Assembly (NCBI GenBank): GCA_015231955.1
Contig: JADGAN010000010.1
Location: forward strand, 62,001-126,000
Direction: 5' to 3'
DNA length: 64,000 nucleotides
From: Oligoflexia bacterium
GTDB taxonomy: Bacteria > Bdellovibrionota > Bacteriovoracia > Bacteriovoracales > Bacteriovoracaceae
Each line of letters begins with the position of its first letter. Positions within the stretch are counted from its first letter, which is position 1. The notes below the pieces were generated by a model. The model did not search any database. It was not told the DNA's origin and saw only the letters and a program-made list of their open reading frames with translations. Below, one piece after another: positions 39,494 to 58,086 of this stretch. Both the position numbers and the translations under genes were made by a program.

Positions 39494-39640
39494 TTCAAAA
39501 ATAGAAATAAAAATAAAATTATCTTACACCATCACTCGGCATTGATTGCACTCATGCGTTCATAGCATTTGTTTATTATAATTGAAGAGTAGGTCATGGA
39601 AAGACCGCTATATCCTTACCAAACCAAACCTGGAGACTTT

Positions 39641-40834
39641 ATGAGACAAGCAAAGAAAATGGATTTTCTTTTGATTGCTGCTTTTTTGCTAACAGTTTTG
39701 ATTCCTTTTCATCGTGTAAGCGCAGAGGAGTTATGGATTACACTCTCTAACGATTTTTACAACCTCATCATCAATGATGTACCGGTATTAAGTAAGCTCG
39801 ACAACCACAGCAAAGAGAGAAGCCTGCTTAAAATCGATGACAAGTATGTGGACACACTCTCCTACTTGAAACATAAAAATCCTAAGATTGGCGGTTTTAT
39901 TGCCCATTACGATTATAAGGAAGGGAAGGAGTATTTAGAAAAAGATTTTACGGCGATTACTCAACAGAAAGTGAGCTATACCATTGGTGAAGAGCAATTG
40001 GTTAATGCTTTGATTGCGCAAGTAAAAGAGGAGAATATCATTGAGACCATCTCTACCCTTGCGGCCTTTCATAACCGTTACTATAAATCCACTACAGGGG
40101 CGGATGCTGCCAATTGGATTAAGAATAAGTGGCTAACCCTTTCCCAAGGAAAGTCGGGAGTTACTGTGGAGGAGTTTCGCCATCGTTTTACTCAGCCCTC
40201 CATTATTTTAACTATCACTGGATCGACTACAGCGAGTGAGGTTATCGTTATCGGTGGCCACGAGGATTCCATTGCAGGATCTTGGGGCGGAAGCACCGCT
40301 AAAGCTCCTGGTGCCGATGACAACGCCTCGGGAATTGCCGTTATCACCGAGATGATAAGAGTTATGATGGTAAATAATTATGTTCCTAAAAAGAGCATTA
40401 AGTTTATTGCGTATGCTGCAGAAGAGGCGGGACTACTTGGCTCCAAAGATGTTGCTGCCGATTTTAAAAAACGTAGCATAAAGGTTAGTGGAGTTATGCA
40501 ATTGGATATGACAAACTATAAAGGCTCTGCAAATGACATCTACCTTATTGGCGATTACACCAATAAAACACAAAATGAGTATATTGGACAATTGATCGAT
40601 AAGTATGTGAAGGTTCCTTGGGGATATAGTACCTGTGGTTACGGATGCTCAGATCACGCCTCTTGGAGTGCTAGCGGTTTTGCGGCCTCTTTCCCCTTTG
40701 AGGCCACTTTCAGTGGTGCAAATCCCGACATCCATACTGCTCGCGATACACTGGAGACTAGCGGTGGACGTGCAGATCATAGTGTGAAATTTGCAAAACT
40801 GGCGATTGCTTACGCTATAGAAATGGCAAAATAA
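39641..40834 (+). CDS. Exported M28-family aminopeptidase
   Basis: 397 residues from the ATG at 39641, chosen for the strong GGAG six bases upstream and because it begins the signal peptide; an in-frame ATG at 39596 is possible. Signal peptide to about residue 27 (ending HRVSA). Two-zinc M28 motifs in order: GGHEDSIAGS (H207), KAPGADDNASG, AEEAGLLGS, QLDMTNY and CSDHASW, matching the Vibrio leucyl aminopeptidase pattern apart from Glu in place of Leu in the first. An N-terminal propeptide-like region of about 80 residues precedes the catalytic domain. It removes N-terminal residues from peptides outside the cytoplasm. Confidence 0.92.
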   Translation: MRQAKKMDFLLIAAFLLTVLIPFHRVSAEELWITLSNDFYNLIINDVPVLSKLDNHSKERSLLKIDDKYVDTLSYLKHKNPKIGGFIAHYDYKEGKEYLEKDFTAITQQKVSYTIGEEQLVNALIAQVKEENIIETISTLAAFHNRYYKSTTGADAANWIKNKWLTLSQGKSGVTVEEFRHRFTQPSIILTITGSTTASEVIVIGGHEDSIAGSWGGSTAKAPGADDNASGIAVITEMIRVMMVNNYVPKKSIKFIAYAAEEAGLLGSKDVAADFKKRSIKVSGVMQLDMTNYKGSANDIYLIGDYTNKTQNEYIGQLIDKYVKVPWGYSTCGYGCSDHASWSASGFAASFPFEATFSGANPDIHTARDTLETSGGRADHSVKFAKLAIAYAIEMAK

Positions 40835-40961: not shown

Positions 40962-40990
40962 TTGGTGCGCAAGCAGTAAACAGATATAAT
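40962..40990 (+). promoter_or_regulatory. Strong sigma-70 promoter for the GS-like gene
   Basis: TTGGTG, 17-base spacer, TATAAT, giving a leader of about 55 bases before the ATG at 41050. A GCGC...GCGC inverted repeat (40953-40970) overlaps the -35 box. The remaining part of the 215-base gap (40835-41049) shows no gene. Confidence 0.6.
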
Positions 40991-41049
40991 CAACTCTATG
41001 GTCAAGGAATGTTATTTTCAAGAAACTTTTGTTTAATGGAGGATTATTT

Positions 41050-42813
41050 ATGAAGATCGGTCGTTTTAATGTAAGCAGAAAATTAGTAGCATTAAGTTTA
41101 GGCATTTCGCTGGTGGGCCTTAATGCTCATGCCGAATCGCCACGAGAGATTTGTGAGCAATTTTTAGATGGTAATAAGGGACAACAACTACAATTCGTAG
41201 AGGTGTACTTTAGAGGAAAAGATTCGGAGCTAAGAGAGGTCGATCTTCCGGTAAAAAGTGTAGACGATTGTATTTCCGCTATTACCTCTATCCATACTGT
41301 AGATGGTTCATCACTTCCAGATATGAATGGGATTGATGAGAGTGACATTGCAGTTCGTGCAGGTCACGCTAGCTTTGGGGTCATGCCAGAAGGTAGAAGA
41401 CCTTATAAAACCATGTATATTGTTGGTGGGGTTTTGAACAGTGATGAGAAGGGGTTTGCTCCTTATACCGATATTCAAAAGCTTGAGAGTGAGATCGTAA
41501 ATGATGAGAGTGACACTGTTGATGCGGTAACGGCACAACGATTAGCAGCGCTTTCGAAAGTAGCAAAAGAAGAGTATGGCATTAAGACTGGAAAGTATGC
41601 TCCAGTGCTCGATAAAGTGGCGGCAAAAATTGCGGATGGAAGTCTTGGTTTTCAGGGCAAAGCGATGATTGGGCCAGAGCTTGAGTTCTTCTTTATGAAA
41701 GCAGACGGTTCTCCCGTTGATTCAAGAACAGCAGGCAATGCTGTTGATTACTATGGGCATATTCCTGCAGATATGAAAGCGATGATGCAATTTATTTTAC
41801 AAAAAATTAGTGAGTACGGTGTGGTCACTGAAAAATTTCACCATGAGGTTGCTCCAGGACAATACGAAATTCCACTAAAAGTGACCGATGCAGTTTCTCA
41901 AGCAAAAAATTTAAGAACCACAATTGCAGTGGTGGAAAGAGTTGCCAAAGAGTTTGGATTAAGTGTGAACTGGGATCCGAAACCCTTTATTCGTGAGAAT
42001 GGCAGTGGAATGCATATGCACTTTAGTATTACAAGTAATGAAGGCAAAAATCTCTTTGCTCGTGTAAACCATGATCCAAGCTATGAGGGAACTTGTGGCA
42101 TCTACTCCAGTGTTGCCGATCAATTTTTCTCAGGACTGCTTTCACAAGTAAAGAGTTTACAAGTTTTCTCCAATCCACTTCCAAACAGTGAAGTGCGTTT
42201 AGGTAAAAATGAGGCCCCAGCACAAATTGCCATGTCGGTTGGAAACCGTACTTCAGTTATTAGATTACCGATCAAAGGTATGGGAACGAATAAAGGCGTA
42301 AGAGGGGAGAAGCGTTCACCAGATGCTATGTCCGAATTTGAGTTAACCATTGCCGATCTTGTCGCTTCTGGGCTTTATGGAATTACCAATAAGATGGCAG
42401 CAACGCCGCTTTCTAAAGGTAATGCTTATGAGATGAATATTACGGAGGAGATGAAACTTGCGGGTACTTTTGCCGCAGTGATAAAGAACTTTATGAGTGG
42501 ACGTAAAGAGAGAATGGCCAAAGATCCATCGAACATTATCGATCAAGTGTTTGATACTAAAACTGTAAGAAGTTATCTTGCTGATCGTTTAGAGTTAGTA
42601 AAATCGGATGCAGCTCCAATACTTGATGTAGCAGCGGCCTATGCTGATGTTAAGTCAGTCGAGAGTGCAACCGTCGTTGATAAGAAGGTTAAAACCATCC
42701 GTGATCGTGTGACCGCAATTGAAAAAATCACCGGACCTGCTGCTAAAGCGGAAGCGATTGCAGCTCTTGAAAGTGCGATTGCAGAGCTAGATCAGGAGAT
42801 GGCATCAAAATAA
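41050..42813 (+). CDS. Glutamine synthetase-like enzyme with a signal peptide
   Basis: 587 residues from the ATG at 41050 (GGAGG eight bases upstream). Residues 1-28 are a signal peptide (NVSRKLVALSLGISLVG, then NAHA); an Arg-Lys pair leaves Tat export open. The GS fold is complete: N-terminal beta-grasp with VDGSSLPDMNGIDESDI, metal and substrate Glu in GPELEFFF (E210/E212) and HHEVAPGQYEI (E266/E273), NGSGMHMHF (H322/H324), then NPLPNSEVRL, NRTSVIRLP and EKRSPDA. In canonical GS the NSYKRL motif has Tyr; here it is Glu. About 75 extra C-terminal residues are helical and Ala-rich. GS ligates ammonia to glutamate using ATP, so export is puzzling. Fold certain, activity uncertain. Confidence 0.9.
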   Translation: MKIGRFNVSRKLVALSLGISLVGLNAHAESPREICEQFLDGNKGQQLQFVEVYFRGKDSELREVDLPVKSVDDCISAITSIHTVDGSSLPDMNGIDESDIAVRAGHASFGVMPEGRRPYKTMYIVGGVLNSDEKGFAPYTDIQKLESEIVNDESDTVDAVTAQRLAALSKVAKEEYGIKTGKYAPVLDKVAAKIADGSLGFQGKAMIGPELEFFFMKADGSPVDSRTAGNAVDYYGHIPADMKAMMQFILQKISEYGVVTEKFHHEVAPGQYEIPLKVTDAVSQAKNLRTTIAVVERVAKEFGLSVNWDPKPFIRENGSGMHMHFSITSNEGKNLFARVNHDPSYEGTCGIYSSVADQFFSGLLSQVKSLQVFSNPLPNSEVRLGKNEAPAQIAMSVGNRTSVIRLPIKGMGTNKGVRGEKRSPDAMSEFELTIADLVASGLYGITNKMAATPLSKGNAYEMNITEEMKLAGTFAAVIKNFMSGRKERMAKDPSNIIDQVFDTKTVRSYLADRLELVKSDAAPILDVAAAYADVKSVESATVVDKKVKTIRDRVTAIEKITGPAAKAEAIAALESAIAELDQEMASK

Positions 42814-42846: not shown

Positions 42847-42890
42847 GGGCCTTTCCTTTAACAGTAAGTAACAGGAAGGCCCTCTTTTAT
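42847..42890. terminator. Bidirectional terminator between GS-like and M14 genes
   Basis: GC-rich stem GGGCCTTTCCT (42847-42857) / AGGAAGGCCC (42873-42882), one bulged base, with six or more A before and a T-rich run (TCTTTTATTTT) after. Convergent genes on both sides make it a terminator for both directions. Confidence 0.85.
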
Positions 42891-44305
42891 TTTGGGGATA
42901 AGTTTAAGTTTAGTTCATAACTTTGATTTGCTCCCAAAGAAATTTTTTCTAAGACGACATCTTGGTATCCTTCCGCACTCACTTTGATGGTGTACTCGCC
43001 GGGGAGAAGTGGCCGAAGATAGTGGCCATCACTTTTATCGGCATAGATAAACGATCCATCAAAATCGTGTCCAATAAGTTCAAATTTTGCAGCAGCAGGG
43101 GAGATTTTACCTCGAAAACCGTTTAACGATTGTTCAAACATCAGCAGTAGGGATTCGAGATTTAAGGGAAAGTATTGGGGGAGTGTGCTTGCTGGAGGGG
43201 TTTTCATGCTGGATAGTTCAATGGTGAGTGCGCGGGAGTGGTGGGTGAAGTTAAGATAGTCGGGGCGACCACCATCAATCTCATACCAAGCGTATCCATT
43301 GGTGATGCCATCTTCGTAATCGCTCATGTAATAGCTATCAGGAAAGCGGGCGTGAATGGTGTCTGCATAGAGGCGGGAGATGGAGCGATACCACTCATTG
43401 TCGGCGTGTAAGCGAGCAAAGGTGTCCCAGGGGTAATTGACCACTTCAGCGCCACCATGAAAATCGAGAGCAAAGAGAAAGTTGTGTTGTTCTAAGAACT
43501 TCATCATCGCCAGTGTCTCTGGTTGCCAGCTCTCTTCATCGGGATGATCGCCACTCTCTGGATCGGGAAAGTTACGATTTAAGTCAACATAGTTACCATT
43601 AAAGCGAGTGGCACCACTGACACTTTGATCACCACGAGCATAAGTACCATCGGGGTTAAAGATGGGATTAATCCAAATTTCACTGCTGTTTAAAATATTT
43701 TGCACGCGGGTGGAAGTTTGGTAATTACTCAGTAGATACTCAATCATTTGCAAAGAGATGATGCTGCCGACTAACTCATCTCCATGAACGGCACCAGTCA
43801 ATAAAAATTTTGGTTTACTGCTGCTGCTGTTGCTGTTGGCATTTTGAGTGATTCGTAAAGCGTAGAGATGGTGTTTTTTTGTGGTTATCCCGAAATCGAT
43901 CAATTGGCAAAGTGAAGGGTATTGGGTGGCCATGCTTTTCATAAAGCTCTCATAGGCGCTGTAGGTAGGATAGGCGTTCCACTTACCATTTAACTCATTG
44001 GTCATTTGCTGCTCTTCAACTGCTATGGCCATTTGCTTACTAATGGAGAGTGTATAGGTGGGATGAGTTCTTAAAAATTGCTGTAGCTTTTTGATATTTT
44101 TAGAGGAGATATAAAGCGTAAGCGAGTTGCCATGGACTTGATCGATCGAAGCAAAGCGTGAAAGCTGGTTTAAGTCGGGGCGATCACTAGCACTAATTGT
44201 ACTTGCTTTTGAGAGCTGGTACTGGTGTTCACTGGCGTAGAGGAGAAGCGGGCAAAGGTATAAGAGGCAGGAGATGGAGAACAGGATAACCAAGTTCAAT
44301 TTCAT
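42887..44305 (-). CDS. Exported M14 zinc carboxypeptidase with CarboxypepD-type C-terminal domain
   Basis: 472 residues with AAGGA before the ATG. Signal peptide 1-25 (hydrophobic CLLYLCPLLLYA). Zinc ligands H174 and E177 (GAVHGDELVG) and H283 (DFHGGAEVVNYPWD); catalytic E363 (ALTIELSS); substrate-binding NPDGTY and DLNRNFPDP are also clear. The last 80 residues form a beta-sandwich like the regulatory domain of carboxypeptidase D (LLPGEYTIKVSAEGYQDV). Residues about 60-100 look like a prodomain. It should cleave C-terminal residues from peptides in the periplasm or outside the cell. Adjacent exported aminopeptidase and GS-like genes fit extracellular peptide use. Confidence 0.93.
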   Translation of the reverse strand: MKLNLVILFSISCLLYLCPLLLYASEHQYQLSKASTISASDRPDLNQLSRFASIDQVHGNSLTLYISSKNIKKLQQFLRTHPTYTLSISKQMAIAVEEQQMTNELNGKWNAYPTYSAYESFMKSMATQYPSLCQLIDFGITTKKHHLYALRITQNANSNSSSSKPKFLLTGAVHGDELVGSIISLQMIEYLLSNYQTSTRVQNILNSSEIWINPIFNPDGTYARGDQSVSGATRFNGNYVDLNRNFPDPESGDHPDEESWQPETLAMMKFLEQHNFLFALDFHGGAEVVNYPWDTFARLHADNEWYRSISRLYADTIHARFPDSYYMSDYEDGITNGYAWYEIDGGRPDYLNFTHHSRALTIELSSMKTPPASTLPQYFPLNLESLLLMFEQSLNGFRGKISPAAAKFELIGHDFDGSFIYADKSDGHYLRPLLPGEYTIKVSAEGYQDVVLEKISLGANQSYELNLNLSPK

Positions 44306-48615: not shown

Positions 48616-50363
48616 TATTGCCTCCATTCATGAATACACCCTTTACAGCTTTGAAAAATTTTCTCCCTACCACCAAAGAGGAGCTGCGCTTGCGTGGCCT
48701 AGATCGGCCTGATATCATTTTGGTGAGTGGAGATACCTATATTGATTCCCCTTTTATTGGAGTGAGTGTGATTGGCCGCTGGCTGGAGGCATCTGGTTTT
48801 TCTGTGGCAATTATCGCTCAACCCGCCATTGATAGCGACATCGATATTGCACGTTTAGGAGAACCTAAACTTTTTTGGGGTGTAACTGCAGGTTCCTTAG
48901 ACTCTATGGTTGCAAACTATACGGCCTTGCAAAAGAGGCGTAAAAGCGATGATCTCACTCCGGGCGGCATGAACACCCTACGTCCCGATCGTGCAACGCT
49001 TGTTTATAGCAACCTGATCAAGCGTTACTTCAAGAAGAGCGTCCCCATCGTATTAGGTGGGGTTGAGGCGAGCTTACGTCGTATCTCCCACTACGACTAC
49101 TGGAGTGATCAGCTCAAGCGTTCGCTGCTCTTAGATGCCAAAGCAGATGCGCTGATTTACGGGATGGGTGAACGTGCCGTTTTGCAAGTGGCGCACAACC
49201 TTAAAAGCAAGCAGCAGCACCCTTTTCAAGAGGTAAAGGGCCTTTGTTATCTAGGGAGTGCAGAGGAGGCCCAAGCAAAAGAGTACTTGCAGTTGCCCTC
49301 ACACCAAGAGGTCTTGAAAGATAAGCTGCTCATGAAAAAGATGTTTGAAACTTTTTATAAAAATCAAGACCCCTTAAATGCGAAGGGACTTTATCAACTA
49401 TACGAGGGGCGCGCGCTTATTCACAACTCACCAGCAGCACCGCTCTCCCCGCAAGAGTTGGATCACCTTTACGAATTACCCTATACTCGAGAACTTCACC
49501 CCTACTACGCCAAGAAAGGGAGCGTGGTTGCCAATGAGACCATTAAGTTTTCAATCACCAGTCATCGTGGATGCTACGGCGAGTGCAACTATTGTGCGAT
49601 TGCAATTCACCAAGGACGCCACATCATTAGTCGCTCTCCTCAGTCGATTGTACGAGAGGGAAAGCTGTTAAGTGAGCGCAGCGATTTCAAAGGATACCTT
49701 CTCGATGTCGGTGGCCCTACTGCCAATATGTATGGTTTTGATTGCAAAAAGAAGCAGAAGAGTGGCAGTTGCCAAGAGCGCCGTTGTCTCTATCCTAAAG
49801 TGTGTAGTGAGCTTCCCATTAACCATGCACCCTATTTAAATCTCTTGCGCTCACTTGCAGCTCTGCCTAAGGTAAAAAAAGTGTTTGTTGCCAGTGGCAT
49901 TCGCATCGATCTTATTGCGAGCGATCTCCAACTAGGCCAGCAATTCTTAAGAGGACTTATTAAAGATCATGTCAGTGGACAAATTAAAATTGCACCAGAA
50001 CACATTGCCCCTGCAACTCTTAAGGCCATGGGTAGGGATGAGCTAGGATTAGGGGCAGAAGCTTTTTTAAAATTAAAAGAGGAGTTTTCTGCAATCAATA
50101 AAGAGTTTAAGAAGAAGCAATTCCTCACCTACTATTTTATTGTTTGCCATCCAGGGGAGAGTGAAAAGGAGCTTCATGCGCTCCAAGAGTTCTTTAAAAA
50201 GCACTTGCATGCACTTCCAGAACAGATTCAAATTTTTACGCCAACGCCAATGACCTACTCAACACTTTTTTACTATACAGAACTAGATAGTAATGCTCAT
50301 CCCTTAAGTGTTAGCAAATCGCTAAAAGAAAAACGTAGGCGTAAAGAGTTGCTATCTTTTTAA
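48612..50363 (+). CDS. ygiQ: YgiQ-family radical SAM protein (UPF0313)
   Basis: 583 residues. N-terminal B12-like/Rossmann domain (FLPTTKEELRLRGLDRPDIILVSGDTYIDSPFIGV; VIGRWLEASGFSVAIIAQP) and a radical SAM core with C321, C325 and C328 (SHRGCYGECNYCAIAIHQGR), followed by SGIRIDL and APEHIAP, all typical of the YgiQ/UPF0313 group. The reaction is not known. The start ATG overlaps the stop of the upstream exported-protein gene; a second ATG at 48630 has no better ribosome site. Its 3' end overlaps the convergent PSD-like gene by 12 bases. Confidence 0.93.
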   Translation: MILPPFMNTPFTALKNFLPTTKEELRLRGLDRPDIILVSGDTYIDSPFIGVSVIGRWLEASGFSVAIIAQPAIDSDIDIARLGEPKLFWGVTAGSLDSMVANYTALQKRRKSDDLTPGGMNTLRPDRATLVYSNLIKRYFKKSVPIVLGGVEASLRRISHYDYWSDQLKRSLLLDAKADALIYGMGERAVLQVAHNLKSKQQHPFQEVKGLCYLGSAEEAQAKEYLQLPSHQEVLKDKLLMKKMFETFYKNQDPLNAKGLYQLYEGRALIHNSPAAPLSPQELDHLYELPYTRELHPYYAKKGSVVANETIKFSITSHRGCYGECNYCAIAIHQGRHIISRSPQSIVREGKLLSERSDFKGYLLDVGGPTANMYGFDCKKKQKSGSCQERRCLYPKVCSELPINHAPYLNLLRSLAALPKVKKVFVASGIRIDLIASDLQLGQQFLRGLIKDHVSGQIKIAPEHIAPATLKAMGRDELGLGAEAFLKLKEEFSAINKEFKKKQFLTYYFIVCHPGESEKELHALQEFFKKHLHALPEQIQIFTPTPMTYSTLFYYTELDSNAHPLSVSKSLKEKRRRKELLSF

Positions 50364-51887
50364 ATAAAAAAGTGGAATTCCCATGTGCATATAGACCTCC
50401 ATCTCTCGCTCCTTTGTCGTTTCCTGGTCTGCTGAAGGCACTCGATAGCTTAAACGTTTTATCTTCTCAATTTTAGGATAGGCCACAATTTTATTTTCAG
50501 GTAAAAACATGATCACTGTTGAACCGCCAAACTCAAAGTGGCCCATAACATCGCCCATGGATAACTCTTGGCCAGGGGTTACGGTGATAATATTAGAGGC
50601 AACTCCAGTAGCACCAACCACCACAAAGGGAATAACTCCTAATTTCGGCACCTCCAAAAATAAGATATCGCGGATATTAACCACTAAAGGATTGTACTTT
50701 ATTGCTTGAGAACTAGTGGCCACAGTACTTACAGAGAGATACTCTCCATCAATATGAAAGGCCGCTGGTGAGTGCTTTTCTTTACTAAAAAAATCTTGGG
50801 CGCTTTTGTTGTTTAATTTTGCTGCAATTTCTGCATGAGAGAGCACCTTTCCTTTGGAAAAGGGAAAATGAAAATTATGGTAGTCGACAGGGGCGAGGCG
50901 ATTGATAATCATGGTAGTGCCCTTTACCTCTTCTGCCATTTGATGCAGTAATACGCGCTCATAATCTTCATAACTTTTAAGCGGCATCGCTTGGAGCTTA
51001 TTCTCTTTGCTACTGCCAAAAAGTTGGCGCACATTAAAGGCATTGATTTTTCCGCTGATATTTTTATCTGTTAAATGGAAGTTTTTATCAATATCGGAAA
51101 TTTTTTCATAAAATCGTATGCGTGAAGTGCTACTAGAAATGATATCTCCCTCTTTAGCACCATAGAAAGTGAGCATGGACTTGACAATTTCAGAAGTGTA
51201 TATTCTTGCAAAAATTTCATTAATGGTTTTATATTCATCAATGCCTTTACCATAAAAAAGCTTGAACTCACGATTGATTTCTAAAATAGTGCTACTGTTA
51301 ACCTCAAGCTTTAAAATATTTATAATAAAATCTAAGATATCTTCTTCGCAAGTGTCGTCACTTTTAAGATAGCCATAAATTTTTGTGAATATTTTTTGAC
51401 TGACAATACTTCTGATGACATCACTTAAAAATCCTTTGTTATACATGAATTTTAAAAAAGCACCACCAGGAACATTTTCAACCTTAATTGCGCCACTGCG
51501 GACGCCACTAATAATGGCCGCCTCATCCAACTTACCACTCAACAACAGTTGATCCACTGCTGGATTTTTTTCTATGTCATCATATTCTATATAGAGGATA
51601 TCTTGATCGTCTGGAGTAAAATCTTTGTCTGTAATAACCATGGGGCCACTAAACCCCCAGACCAGTTTGGAGAAGCACTTACCAGGAGCATCTTGCAGCT
51701 TAGTATCGTCTCTATCTTCAACGATTCTTATCATCTCAGATAGACGGGGAGAACTTTGGGGCGAAGGCAATGATTGCCCTATACGTGTTGCACACTGGTC
51801 AATATCGATGGCATACGCATGCATAGGCATGTATTGGATCATTGCCAGATAAAGAAAGAACAGCAAACGTAAATAAAGTAGATGCAT
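50352..51887 (-). CDS. Exported phosphatidylserine decarboxylase-like protein
   Basis: 511 residues; GAGGA eight bases before the ATG. Signal peptide 1-27 (LLFFLYLAMIQYMPMHAYA). The C-terminal third matches a PSD catalytic domain: LAPVDYHNFHFPFSKGKV (the His/Asp region), VGATGVASNIITV and the autocleavage site FEFGGSTVIMFLP, where Ser456 would become the pyruvoyl group, leaving a 56-residue alpha chain. The first 320 residues are a domain I do not recognise. Usual PSD is an inner-membrane protein making phosphatidylethanolamine; a form with an export signal and a large extra domain could act on lipids elsewhere, for example in another cell. Confidence 0.75.
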   Translation of the reverse strand: MHLLYLRLLFFLYLAMIQYMPMHAYAIDIDQCATRIGQSLPSPQSSPRLSEMIRIVEDRDDTKLQDAPGKCFSKLVWGFSGPMVITDKDFTPDDQDILYIEYDDIEKNPAVDQLLLSGKLDEAAIISGVRSGAIKVENVPGGAFLKFMYNKGFLSDVIRSIVSQKIFTKIYGYLKSDDTCEEDILDFIINILKLEVNSSTILEINREFKLFYGKGIDEYKTINEIFARIYTSEIVKSMLTFYGAKEGDIISSSTSRIRFYEKISDIDKNFHLTDKNISGKINAFNVRQLFGSSKENKLQAMPLKSYEDYERVLLHQMAEEVKGTTMIINRLAPVDYHNFHFPFSKGKVLSHAEIAAKLNNKSAQDFFSKEKHSPAAFHIDGEYLSVSTVATSSQAIKYNPLVVNIRDILFLEVPKLGVIPFVVVGATGVASNIITVTPGQELSMGDVMGHFEFGGSTVIMFLPENKIVAYPKIEKIKRLSYRVPSADQETTKEREMEVYMHMGIPLFYLKR

Positions 51888-56394: not shown

Positions 56395-58086
56395 ATGATA
56401 GATTATTGGTTCAAAATATCAAAAACTTTTGCAGTAATATTCCTGGGCCTATCTCTTTCCACATCAGCGCAAGAGCTTACGCTCGATAAATTAAAAAAAG
56501 ATATCGTTACATCGTCACTCACGGAAAAGCAAAAAACATTTATCCTACGTGAAAATTTTGAAAATAGCTTTATTGACCCTCAAAGCAGACAAGATCACAA
56601 GGGAGATCATGTGCCTGTTAAAAGTGCCTTGGCCTACTTTAAAGTTCCCCTTGATTTAGTGGGAGTATTTAGAGCAAATAGATTAGATCCTCGCATGGAG
56701 GATGCCTTAGTATTTGAAGAAGCGGGAAGAAAGTACGTAAGATGGTTTATACACCCTGAAGATACCAAGTATTTTCAGCAAACCAAGAATTTCTTGAAGT
56801 CCAAAGGACTTAGCGACAAAGAATTAACCCTGGTTACAGAAGATCCGTTAGGACTTGAAGGATATCTCACGGCCTCTCGAAGTATTCTCATAAGATCAAA
56901 AAAAAATGGGATGGTTTTTTCTGCTAAAATATCAACCAACTACGTTGGAAGTCATGAGGAAGTTCCTCTGGAACCTAAAATCATGGTGGGAAATAAGGCG
57001 GTCTTAGCACCCCTTTTAACCAATTATGTCGATAGGCTCACTCCTGGCGAAGAGGGCCTCTCCTCTTTAATCTTGCAAAGGGAACCTCTCGGTTTTTCAA
57101 TAGGATCGGCGCAACTGGGAAATAAGCAAGAGAGTTCTTTTAGCATGGTCATTCGTGATTTAGGAGGACTTGCACGAGATGATGGATATGATTATCTTCC
57201 GGCCTTTTCTCTTGAAAAATCAGGAAAAGAAATTGCCGCCCATGCGCTGGGAATAGATCAAAAGAAAATAAGTAATAAAGAAGTTGCGGCATTTTGGACT
57301 GAACACTACTTAAAACCACTCGCCCGAGCACAAGCAGAGTTGCTTATTCATTATGGAATTATGATGACAGCTGTTCATGGGCAACAATTCTTAATCCAAA
57401 TGAAAGAGGGTATCCCCACAGGAAAAATTGTTATTCGTGATTTTTCGGATGGAGATTTGCTAGTAAAATTGGTCTGCCAAGAAAATCTTAATCAAGAACT
57501 GATTGCACATTGGCCAGAGAAAGTTGTAACAGACAAAATTGAGATTGATCTGATCTCTCCTTATGCGAATCGCAGTTTTATTTCAACAATACCCCGTTGG
57601 TTTAACTCTATTAAAGCAGCTGCCGATGCTGAGTTAAACTATGCCAGCGAATTTGAATCAGAACTTTCTGCGCTAACAGGCATTCCGTTTGAACACGGAA
57701 AATTGCTTGGTTCTCCTCGCCAACAAAAAATTATCGACAATGCTTTAAAACACAAAGAAGATCCTTCTGCTTATGAGAAAGGAGTGGCGCTATTTCCATC
57801 TTATTATTTGCAAATACTTGCAGGCCTTGCAGGAATTGATCCTAAGACTTCTCTTGGTCGCGATAAAATCACTTACCGAGGAGATCGATGGGAGGAGTAT
57901 CTTGCTATTTATCATTGTCAAAAAGGGATCATTCAATCTTGTAATGGCAAAAGTTGCGATGAGCTTTTGACCTACTTAGGAGGCGGCCTTCCCTCTCGCT
58001 GTGAAAATCCTGGAATTCTCCAATTTATTCACACTATCAAAAATAATATTTTTGATGCATTATCACAACCTCCTTCTACAAAGTAG
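56395..58086 (+). CDS. Exported IucA/IucC-like protein
   Basis: 563 residues with GGAGG before the ATG. Signal peptide 1-25 (FAVIFLGLSLSTSA). The middle resembles siderophore (NIS) synthetases: TAVHGQQFLIQ (H328, Q330, compare HxQN) followed by GKIVIRDFSDGD (R348, D349), and an upstream ILIRSKKNGMVFSAKIS segment where family members carry a His-Pro and Lys for ATP binding, not fully kept here. The C-terminus is a Cys-containing domain. NIS synthetases adenylate carboxylates in the cytosol; an exported version would not find ATP in its own periplasm. Homology is moderate and based on motifs only. Neighbours are other exported proteins. Confidence 0.45.
   Translation: MIDYWFKISKTFAVIFLGLSLSTSAQELTLDKLKKDIVTSSLTEKQKTFILRENFENSFIDPQSRQDHKGDHVPVKSALAYFKVPLDLVGVFRANRLDPRMEDALVFEEAGRKYVRWFIHPEDTKYFQQTKNFLKSKGLSDKELTLVTEDPLGLEGYLTASRSILIRSKKNGMVFSAKISTNYVGSHEEVPLEPKIMVGNKAVLAPLLTNYVDRLTPGEEGLSSLILQREPLGFSIGSAQLGNKQESSFSMVIRDLGGLARDDGYDYLPAFSLEKSGKEIAAHALGIDQKKISNKEVAAFWTEHYLKPLARAQAELLIHYGIMMTAVHGQQFLIQMKEGIPTGKIVIRDFSDGDLLVKLVCQENLNQELIAHWPEKVVTDKIEIDLISPYANRSFISTIPRWFNSIKAAADAELNYASEFESELSALTGIPFEHGKLLGSPRQQKIIDNALKHKEDPSAYEKGVALFPSYYLQILAGLAGIDPKTSLGRDKITYRGDRWEEYLAIYHCQKGIIQSCNGKSCDELLTYLGGGLPSRCENPGILQFIHTIKNNIFDALSQPPSTK

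What the first reader, a model, noticed from the sequence alone, without database searches (positions are those of the whole stretch)
41050..42813. Glutamine synthetase homologue with a signal peptide
The fold and nearly all active-site residues are kept (E210/E212, E266/E273, H322/H324, NRTSVIRLP), yet the protein starts with a clear signal peptide behind a strong promoter and ribosome site. GS needs ATP, which is absent from the periplasm. Either the protein works in another compartment (for example in a prey or host cell), uses a different substrate, or has become a binding protein. The Tyr to Glu change in NSYKRL may alter specificity.
Basis: partly seen in the sequence, partly recalled or inferred. 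Interest (0 to 1): 0.72.

Follow-up and report, generated by a model that had tools for sequence, protein, structure and literature searches.

The report
Exported glutamine synthetase-like enzyme
A large-genome bacterium from a family of bacterial predators carries a second, strongly diverged glutamine synthetase with a secretion signal and every catalytic residue intact, so an ATP-dependent nitrogen enzyme seems to have been re-tooled to work outside the cell that makes it.

Summary
The ORF at 41050-42813 (+) encodes 587 residues: a Sec-type signal peptide, a degenerate beta-grasp domain and a glutamine synthetase (GS) catalytic domain (PF00120, 1e-52). It is 27% identical to Salmonella GSI over aligned positions, yet keeps 21 of 21 tabulated metal, glutamate, ATP and ammonium residues. 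The genome also has an ordinary GSI (L001) and a signal-less GS-like gene (L003). Of 369 held genomes of the phylum, only one other (G024, another genus of the same family) has a clear relative with a signal peptide; a tree joins the two weakly (95/82, very long branches). The family is that of Halobacteriovorax marinus, judged by the 1,973-bp contig of G002. Best explanation: a catalytically competent glutamate-ammonia ligase exported by Sec, probably beyond the outer membrane, working where ATP is available, such as prey contents. Export is a strong sequence inference; activity is likely; site and role are inferred. The Tyr-to-Glu change is real but not at a listed ligand; the intact ammonium pocket argues against a polyamine acceptor. 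Leaderless extracellular GS is known in Mycobacterium tuberculosis and Acinetobacter baumannii; literature searches found no GS with its own signal peptide. Two nearby genes also put signal peptides before normally non-exported enzyme domains.

The parts
40962..40990 (+). putative promoter: TTGGTG - 17 nt - TATAAT
   Evidence: read from the sequence; below the threshold of the consensus scan
41038..41042 (+). Shine-Dalgarno GGAGG, 7 nt before the ATG
   Evidence: read from the sequence
41050..42813 (+). exported glutamine synthetase homologue, 587 aa plus stop
   Evidence: ORF; PF00120 E=1.3e-52; modest AF2 model with GSI structures as best Foldseek hits
41050..41133 (+). Sec-type signal peptide, residues 1-28, predicted cleavage AHA|ESP
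   Evidence: hydropathy, charge and AXA motif compared with six other GS/GS-like proteins and the window's ORFs
41188..41403 (+). degenerate beta-grasp (Gln-synt_N) domain, residues 47-118, holding D85 and S88 (= D50, S53)
   Evidence: PF03951 E=2.1e-4, below the gathering cut-off; residues mapped
41614..42582 (+). GS catalytic domain, residues 189-511
   Evidence: PF00120 match; all 17 mapped metal, glutamate and ATP residues plus the Y179 and E327 equivalents kept
42595..42810 (+). C-terminal extension, about residues 516-587, helical, Ala-rich, absent from the aligned GSI sequences
   Evidence: alignments; helices in the AF2 model
42847..42882 (.). GGGCCTTTCCT...AGGAAGGCCC hairpin followed by a T-rich tail, possible terminator between convergent genes
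   Evidence: read from the sequence; loop too long for the scan
39596..40834 (+). upstream neighbour: exported M28 metallopeptidase (possible context, not a proven partner)
   Evidence: PF04389 E=3e-35; signal peptide
42887..44305 (-). downstream convergent neighbour: exported M14 zinc carboxypeptidase (possible context)
   Evidence: PF00246 E=3e-53; signal peptide

Best explanation
The gene encodes a second, diverged GSI-type enzyme that crosses the inner membrane by Sec, loses its signal peptide and works as a glutamate-ammonia ligase (glutamate + NH3 + ATP to glutamine) outside the cytosol. Because the periplasm lacks ATP, the likeliest workplace is beyond the outer membrane, in the contents of prey or lysed cells, where ATP, free glutamate and ammonium are present. 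The ordinary biosynthetic role stays with the separate GSI. Shown: the signal-peptide sequence; a complete active site; an ordinary GSI in the same genome; a signal-peptide-bearing relative in another genus; a type II secretin gene. Inferred: cleavage, passage across the outer membrane, catalysis, working site and benefit (capturing ammonia as glutamine, or draining prey glutamate and ATP).
For: 21/21 mapped metal, glutamate, ATP and ammonium residues kept at 26.6% overall identity, on a branch of about 2.4 changes per column, which implies selection on catalysis. Ammonium-pocket residues kept, in contrast to polyamine/ethanolamine ligases. Signal-peptide features absent from the other GS measured. 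A relative with a signal peptide in G024. Separate GSI in the same genome. GspD present. Extracellular, T2SS-dependent GS activity reported in A. baumannii and extracellular GS in pathogenic mycobacteria. The family contains the predator H. marinus, identified by the 1,973-bp plasmid.
Against: No ATP in the periplasm; no proof of outer-membrane passage; no evidence that this 5.6-Mb organism is a predator. No close relatives, so selection was not measured directly. Only two such genes in 369 genomes, so it is not a core trait of the phylum. The flap is one residue shorter (GKN-EAP for VPGYEAP) and E381 is unusual, so catalysis may be altered. Sec export and refolding of a large oligomer are demanding.
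Confidence: 0.45

Rival explanations
1. It is exported and catalytic but joins glutamate to another acceptor (amine, peptide, cell-wall or prey component) rather than ammonia.
For: Altered flap and NSEVRL segment, long linker and C-terminal extension; extreme divergence. GS-fold ligases for other amines are known.
Against: D50, S53, Y179 and E327 equivalents are all kept; all four are replaced in the two non-GlnA homologues aligned (L005, L062) and several are lost in described amine ligases.
Confidence: 0.2
2. It is a periplasmic sensor or binding protein (glutamate, glutamine or a nucleotide) that no longer catalyses ligation.
For: The periplasm lacks ATP; degenerate beta-grasp domain (PF03951 below cut-off); shortened flap.
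Against: All ATP- and metal-binding residues kept, including K352 and H271 equivalents that some ordinary GSI lack, which a binding protein would not need.
Confidence: 0.2
3. It works in the periplasm without ATP, for example by the gamma-glutamyl transfer side-reaction of GS.
For: GS carries out gamma-glutamyl transfer with ADP and phosphate or arsenate (established knowledge of GS; not tested here); this would need no export across the outer membrane. No tool result supports it directly.
Against: That reaction needs bound nucleotide too; no natural periplasmic case was found in the papers searched.
Confidence: 0.08
4. The N-terminal hydrophobic stretch does not export the protein and it is an ordinary extra cytosolic GS.
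For: Export rests on sequence only; no experiment.
Against: Well-formed n-, h- and c-regions with AHA motif directly behind a good ribosome site; the relative in G024 also begins with a signal peptide, of unrelated sequence.
Confidence: 0.06

Closest known systems
Type I glutamine synthetase (GlnA, TIGR00653; S. typhimurium 1FPY)
   Same: Same fold and domain order; all 21 mapped active-site residues
   Different: Signal peptide, about 27% identity, 184 bits against an equivalog cut-off of 429, shortened flap, long linker, C-terminal extension
Leaderless extracellular GS of pathogenic mycobacteria and A. baumannii GlnA-1 (T2SS-dependent)
   Same: GS activity found outside the cell
   Different: There the main biosynthetic GlnA itself is found outside; here a separate diverged copy carries its own signal peptide
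Gamma-glutamylpolyamine / ethanolamide synthetases (PuuA, PauA7, GlnA2-4)
   Same: GS fold; metal, glutamate and ATP sites
   Different: They have lost ammonium-pocket residues; this protein keeps them all
L073 protein of G024 (same family, other genus)
   Same: Signal peptide, GS catalytic domain, very long branch; tree sister at 95/82
   Different: Two beta-grasp-like copies, keeps NSYFRL, shares only 34% identity over the catalytic domain

Membership tests
Glutamine synthetase superfamily (PF00120) | Catalytic domain above gathering score | tested here: met
   179.4 bits against cut-off 24
Type I GlnA (TIGR00653 equivalog) | Score above equivalog cut-off | tested here: not met
   183.9 bits against 429.15
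Type I GlnA (TIGR00653 equivalog) | Beta-grasp N domain (PF03951) | tested here: inconclusive
   21.3 bits against cut-off 33.4, right place; D50 and S53 equivalents present
Type I GlnA (TIGR00653 equivalog) | Metal, glutamate, ATP and ammonium residues | tested here: met
   21 of 21; most of the list from PMC6529630 and PMC8998196, the rest from own knowledge
Type I GlnA (TIGR00653 equivalog) | Cytosolic, no signal peptide | tested here: not met
   Signal-peptide-like N-terminus
Type I GlnA (TIGR00653 equivalog) | Dodecamer with glutamine synthetase activity | not testable with these tools
   needs purified protein
Gamma-glutamylputrescine synthetase (NF045547) | Score above equivalog cut-off | tested here: not met
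   80.2 bits against 650
Gamma-glutamylpolyamine/ethanolamide ligases | Loss of ammonium-pocket residues | tested here: not met
   D85, S88, Y234 and E388 all kept
Tat-exported proteins | Twin-arginine motif | tested here: not met
   N-terminus has SRKLVA, no RR

The most novel reading that the evidence does not exclude
This lineage exports a set of metabolic-enzyme homologues (GS, a phosphatidylserine decarboxylase homologue, an IucC/FhuF-like ATP-dependent ligase homologue) that run inside prey or host and redirect its nitrogen and lipid metabolism using its ATP.
Probability: 0.13. Interest if true: 0.85.

Novelty: new variant of a known kind. Interest (0 to 1): 0.55.

Why it matters
Glutamine synthetase is a textbook cytosolic, ATP-dependent enzyme. 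A dedicated exported copy with a complete active site means either that ATP-driven biosynthesis takes place outside the producing cell, for instance inside prey, or that the GS fold has gained a new extracytoplasmic role while keeping its full ATP site. Extracellular GS has been reported in M. tuberculosis and A. baumannii as leaderless protein; a copy with its own signal peptide makes the question of purposeful export directly testable.

Tried and rejected
ADP/ATP translocase as a mark of life in host cytosol: only a partial 28.6-bit match, with a similar weak match in the predator genome G002, so no support. General enrichment of exported cytosolic enzymes: 30 signal-peptide proteins sampled from three contigs of the genome were mostly binding proteins, peptidases, TonB receptors and unknowns, so the window's cluster is not typical of the genome. 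Other signal-peptide GS in the phylum: long-frame GS matches were checked and their N-termini are not signal-like. Genome-contig scan with the protein: only ordinary GS and GS-like ligases, mostly Paracoccus. Plasmid tblastn: only homologues under 60% identity. Viral contigs: ordinary GSI-type genes. Placement of the protein in the GS tree: not resolved because of long branches. Naming the genome by 16S: none in the assembly. Plasmid look-up for G002's small contig: no match in the collection; its identity rests on contig length against PMC5760749. Relatives of the 56395-58086 protein in viral contigs: none.

Full report
The observation. The window ORF at 41050-42813 (+) starts at ATG 41050 behind GGAGG (41038-41042) and encodes 587 residues. 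Pfam finds the GS catalytic domain (PF00120, residues 189-511, E=1.3e-52) and, below the curated cut-off, the beta-grasp domain (PF03951, residues 47-118, E=2.1e-4). NCBIfam's GlnA equivalog is matched at 183.9 bits, far under its 429-bit cut-off. phmmer against PDB sequences and Foldseek of an AF2 model of modest quality (mean pLDDT 68, pTM 0.68) both return GSI structures first. The first 28 residues have a positive n-region, a hydrophobic core (12-residue peak 2.29) and an AHA|E cleavage motif; six other GS and GS-like proteins measured the same way peak at 0.2-1.0. No twin arginine is present, so Sec rather than Tat is expected.

The active site. The genome's own ordinary GSI differs at one of these (N264 to S). 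Two aligned homologues of other specificity (L005, L062) have lost D50, S53, Y179 and E327, and described amine ligases have lost several of them. So a glutamate-ammonia ligase is the likeliest chemistry. The Y-to-E change (E381) and a flap shorter by one residue (GKN-EAP) are real, but their effect is unknown.

Relatives. The genome (G000, 5.6 Mb) has three PF00120 genes: an ordinary GSI (L001), this one, and a 528-residue GS-like gene without signal peptide (L003) that belongs to a separate clade found in five other genomes of the family. Among 129 genomes of the family and all 369 held of the phylum, one other clear case was found: G024, another genus, whose 642-residue protein (L073:607-2535) starts with a signal peptide and has a GS catalytic domain and two beta-grasp-like segments. 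Other long GS frames in the phylum were checked and are not signal-like. The two exported proteins share 34% identity over the catalytic domain, no more than each shares with GSI. A careful tree joins them at 95/82, but both branches are very long and leaving one out does not place the other, so common origin of the exported form is likely rather than shown.

The organism. One same-family genome, G002, has a second contig of exactly 1,973 bases, the size of the H. marinus SJ plasmid (PMC5760749); NCBI puts that species in Halobacteriovoraceae, Bdellovibrionota. The window's genome is thus a relative of predatory bacteria; its own way of life is unknown. It has a type II secretin over cut-off, so a route across the outer membrane exists in principle.

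Surroundings. The gene sits between an exported M28 peptidase and a convergent exported M14 carboxypeptidase, which may only reflect a secretion-rich genome. Nearby, 50352-51887 (-) is a signal-peptide protein with a phosphatidylserine decarboxylase domain and GGST motif, whose only full-length relative in 291 genomes is again in G024, also with a hydrophobic N-terminus. And 56395-58086 (+) is a signal-peptide protein with a weak FhuF/IucC match whose family, with signal peptides or lipoprotein signals and a conserved H-SQNF...RDFGD motif, occurs across the phylum. These hint at a wider use of exported enzyme homologues, but a sample of 30 other exported proteins of this genome did not show more of the kind.

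Known precedents. Extracellular GS is reported in pathogenic mycobacteria (PMC5626031) and, dependent on the type II system, in A. baumannii (PMC12829801). Both are the ordinary GlnA; that they lack a signal peptide is my own knowledge and not stated in the passages read. Literature searches found no GS with its own signal peptide; absence from this library is not proof of absence.

Verdict. The core of the claim is sound: export (about 0.9), an intact active site (shown) and probable catalysis (about 0.75). Where it works and what for remains inference; work in prey or lysed-cell contents supplied with ATP is the best single account (0.45).

Noticed in passing
window 50352-51887 (-): Signal peptide plus phosphatidylserine decarboxylase domain (PF02666 E=2e-20, GGST motif); the only full-length relative among 291 phylum genomes is in G024 (L200:352-1977), the genome that also has the other exported GS.
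   Followed up: partly
window 56395-58086 (+): Signal-peptide protein with a weak FhuF/IucC (NIS-synthetase-like) match; a family spread over the phylum with conserved signal peptide or lipoprotein signal and motif HSQNFLVELD..PTG+IVLRDFGD, which suggests an exported ATP-dependent ligase homologue.
   Followed up: partly
L003:1132-2718 (G000 C37): Second GS-like protein without signal peptide, in a well-separated clade with members in G017, G021, G024, G103 and G104; keeps D50, S53, Y179 and E327 but lacks several ATP residues.
   Followed up: partly
L174:12702-14093 (-) (G000 C37): Signal-peptide protein with leucine-rich repeats and a ChaN/Tiki haem-binding domain.
   Followed up: no
L147:157-4731 (G024 C12): 1524-residue protein with a weak ABC1 kinase-like match, three genes upstream of the exported GS of G024.
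   Followed up: no
window 41050-42813: Third-position GC of the GS gene is 0.33, below the 15 neighbouring genes measured (0.37-0.50): high expression or foreign origin.
   Followed up: no
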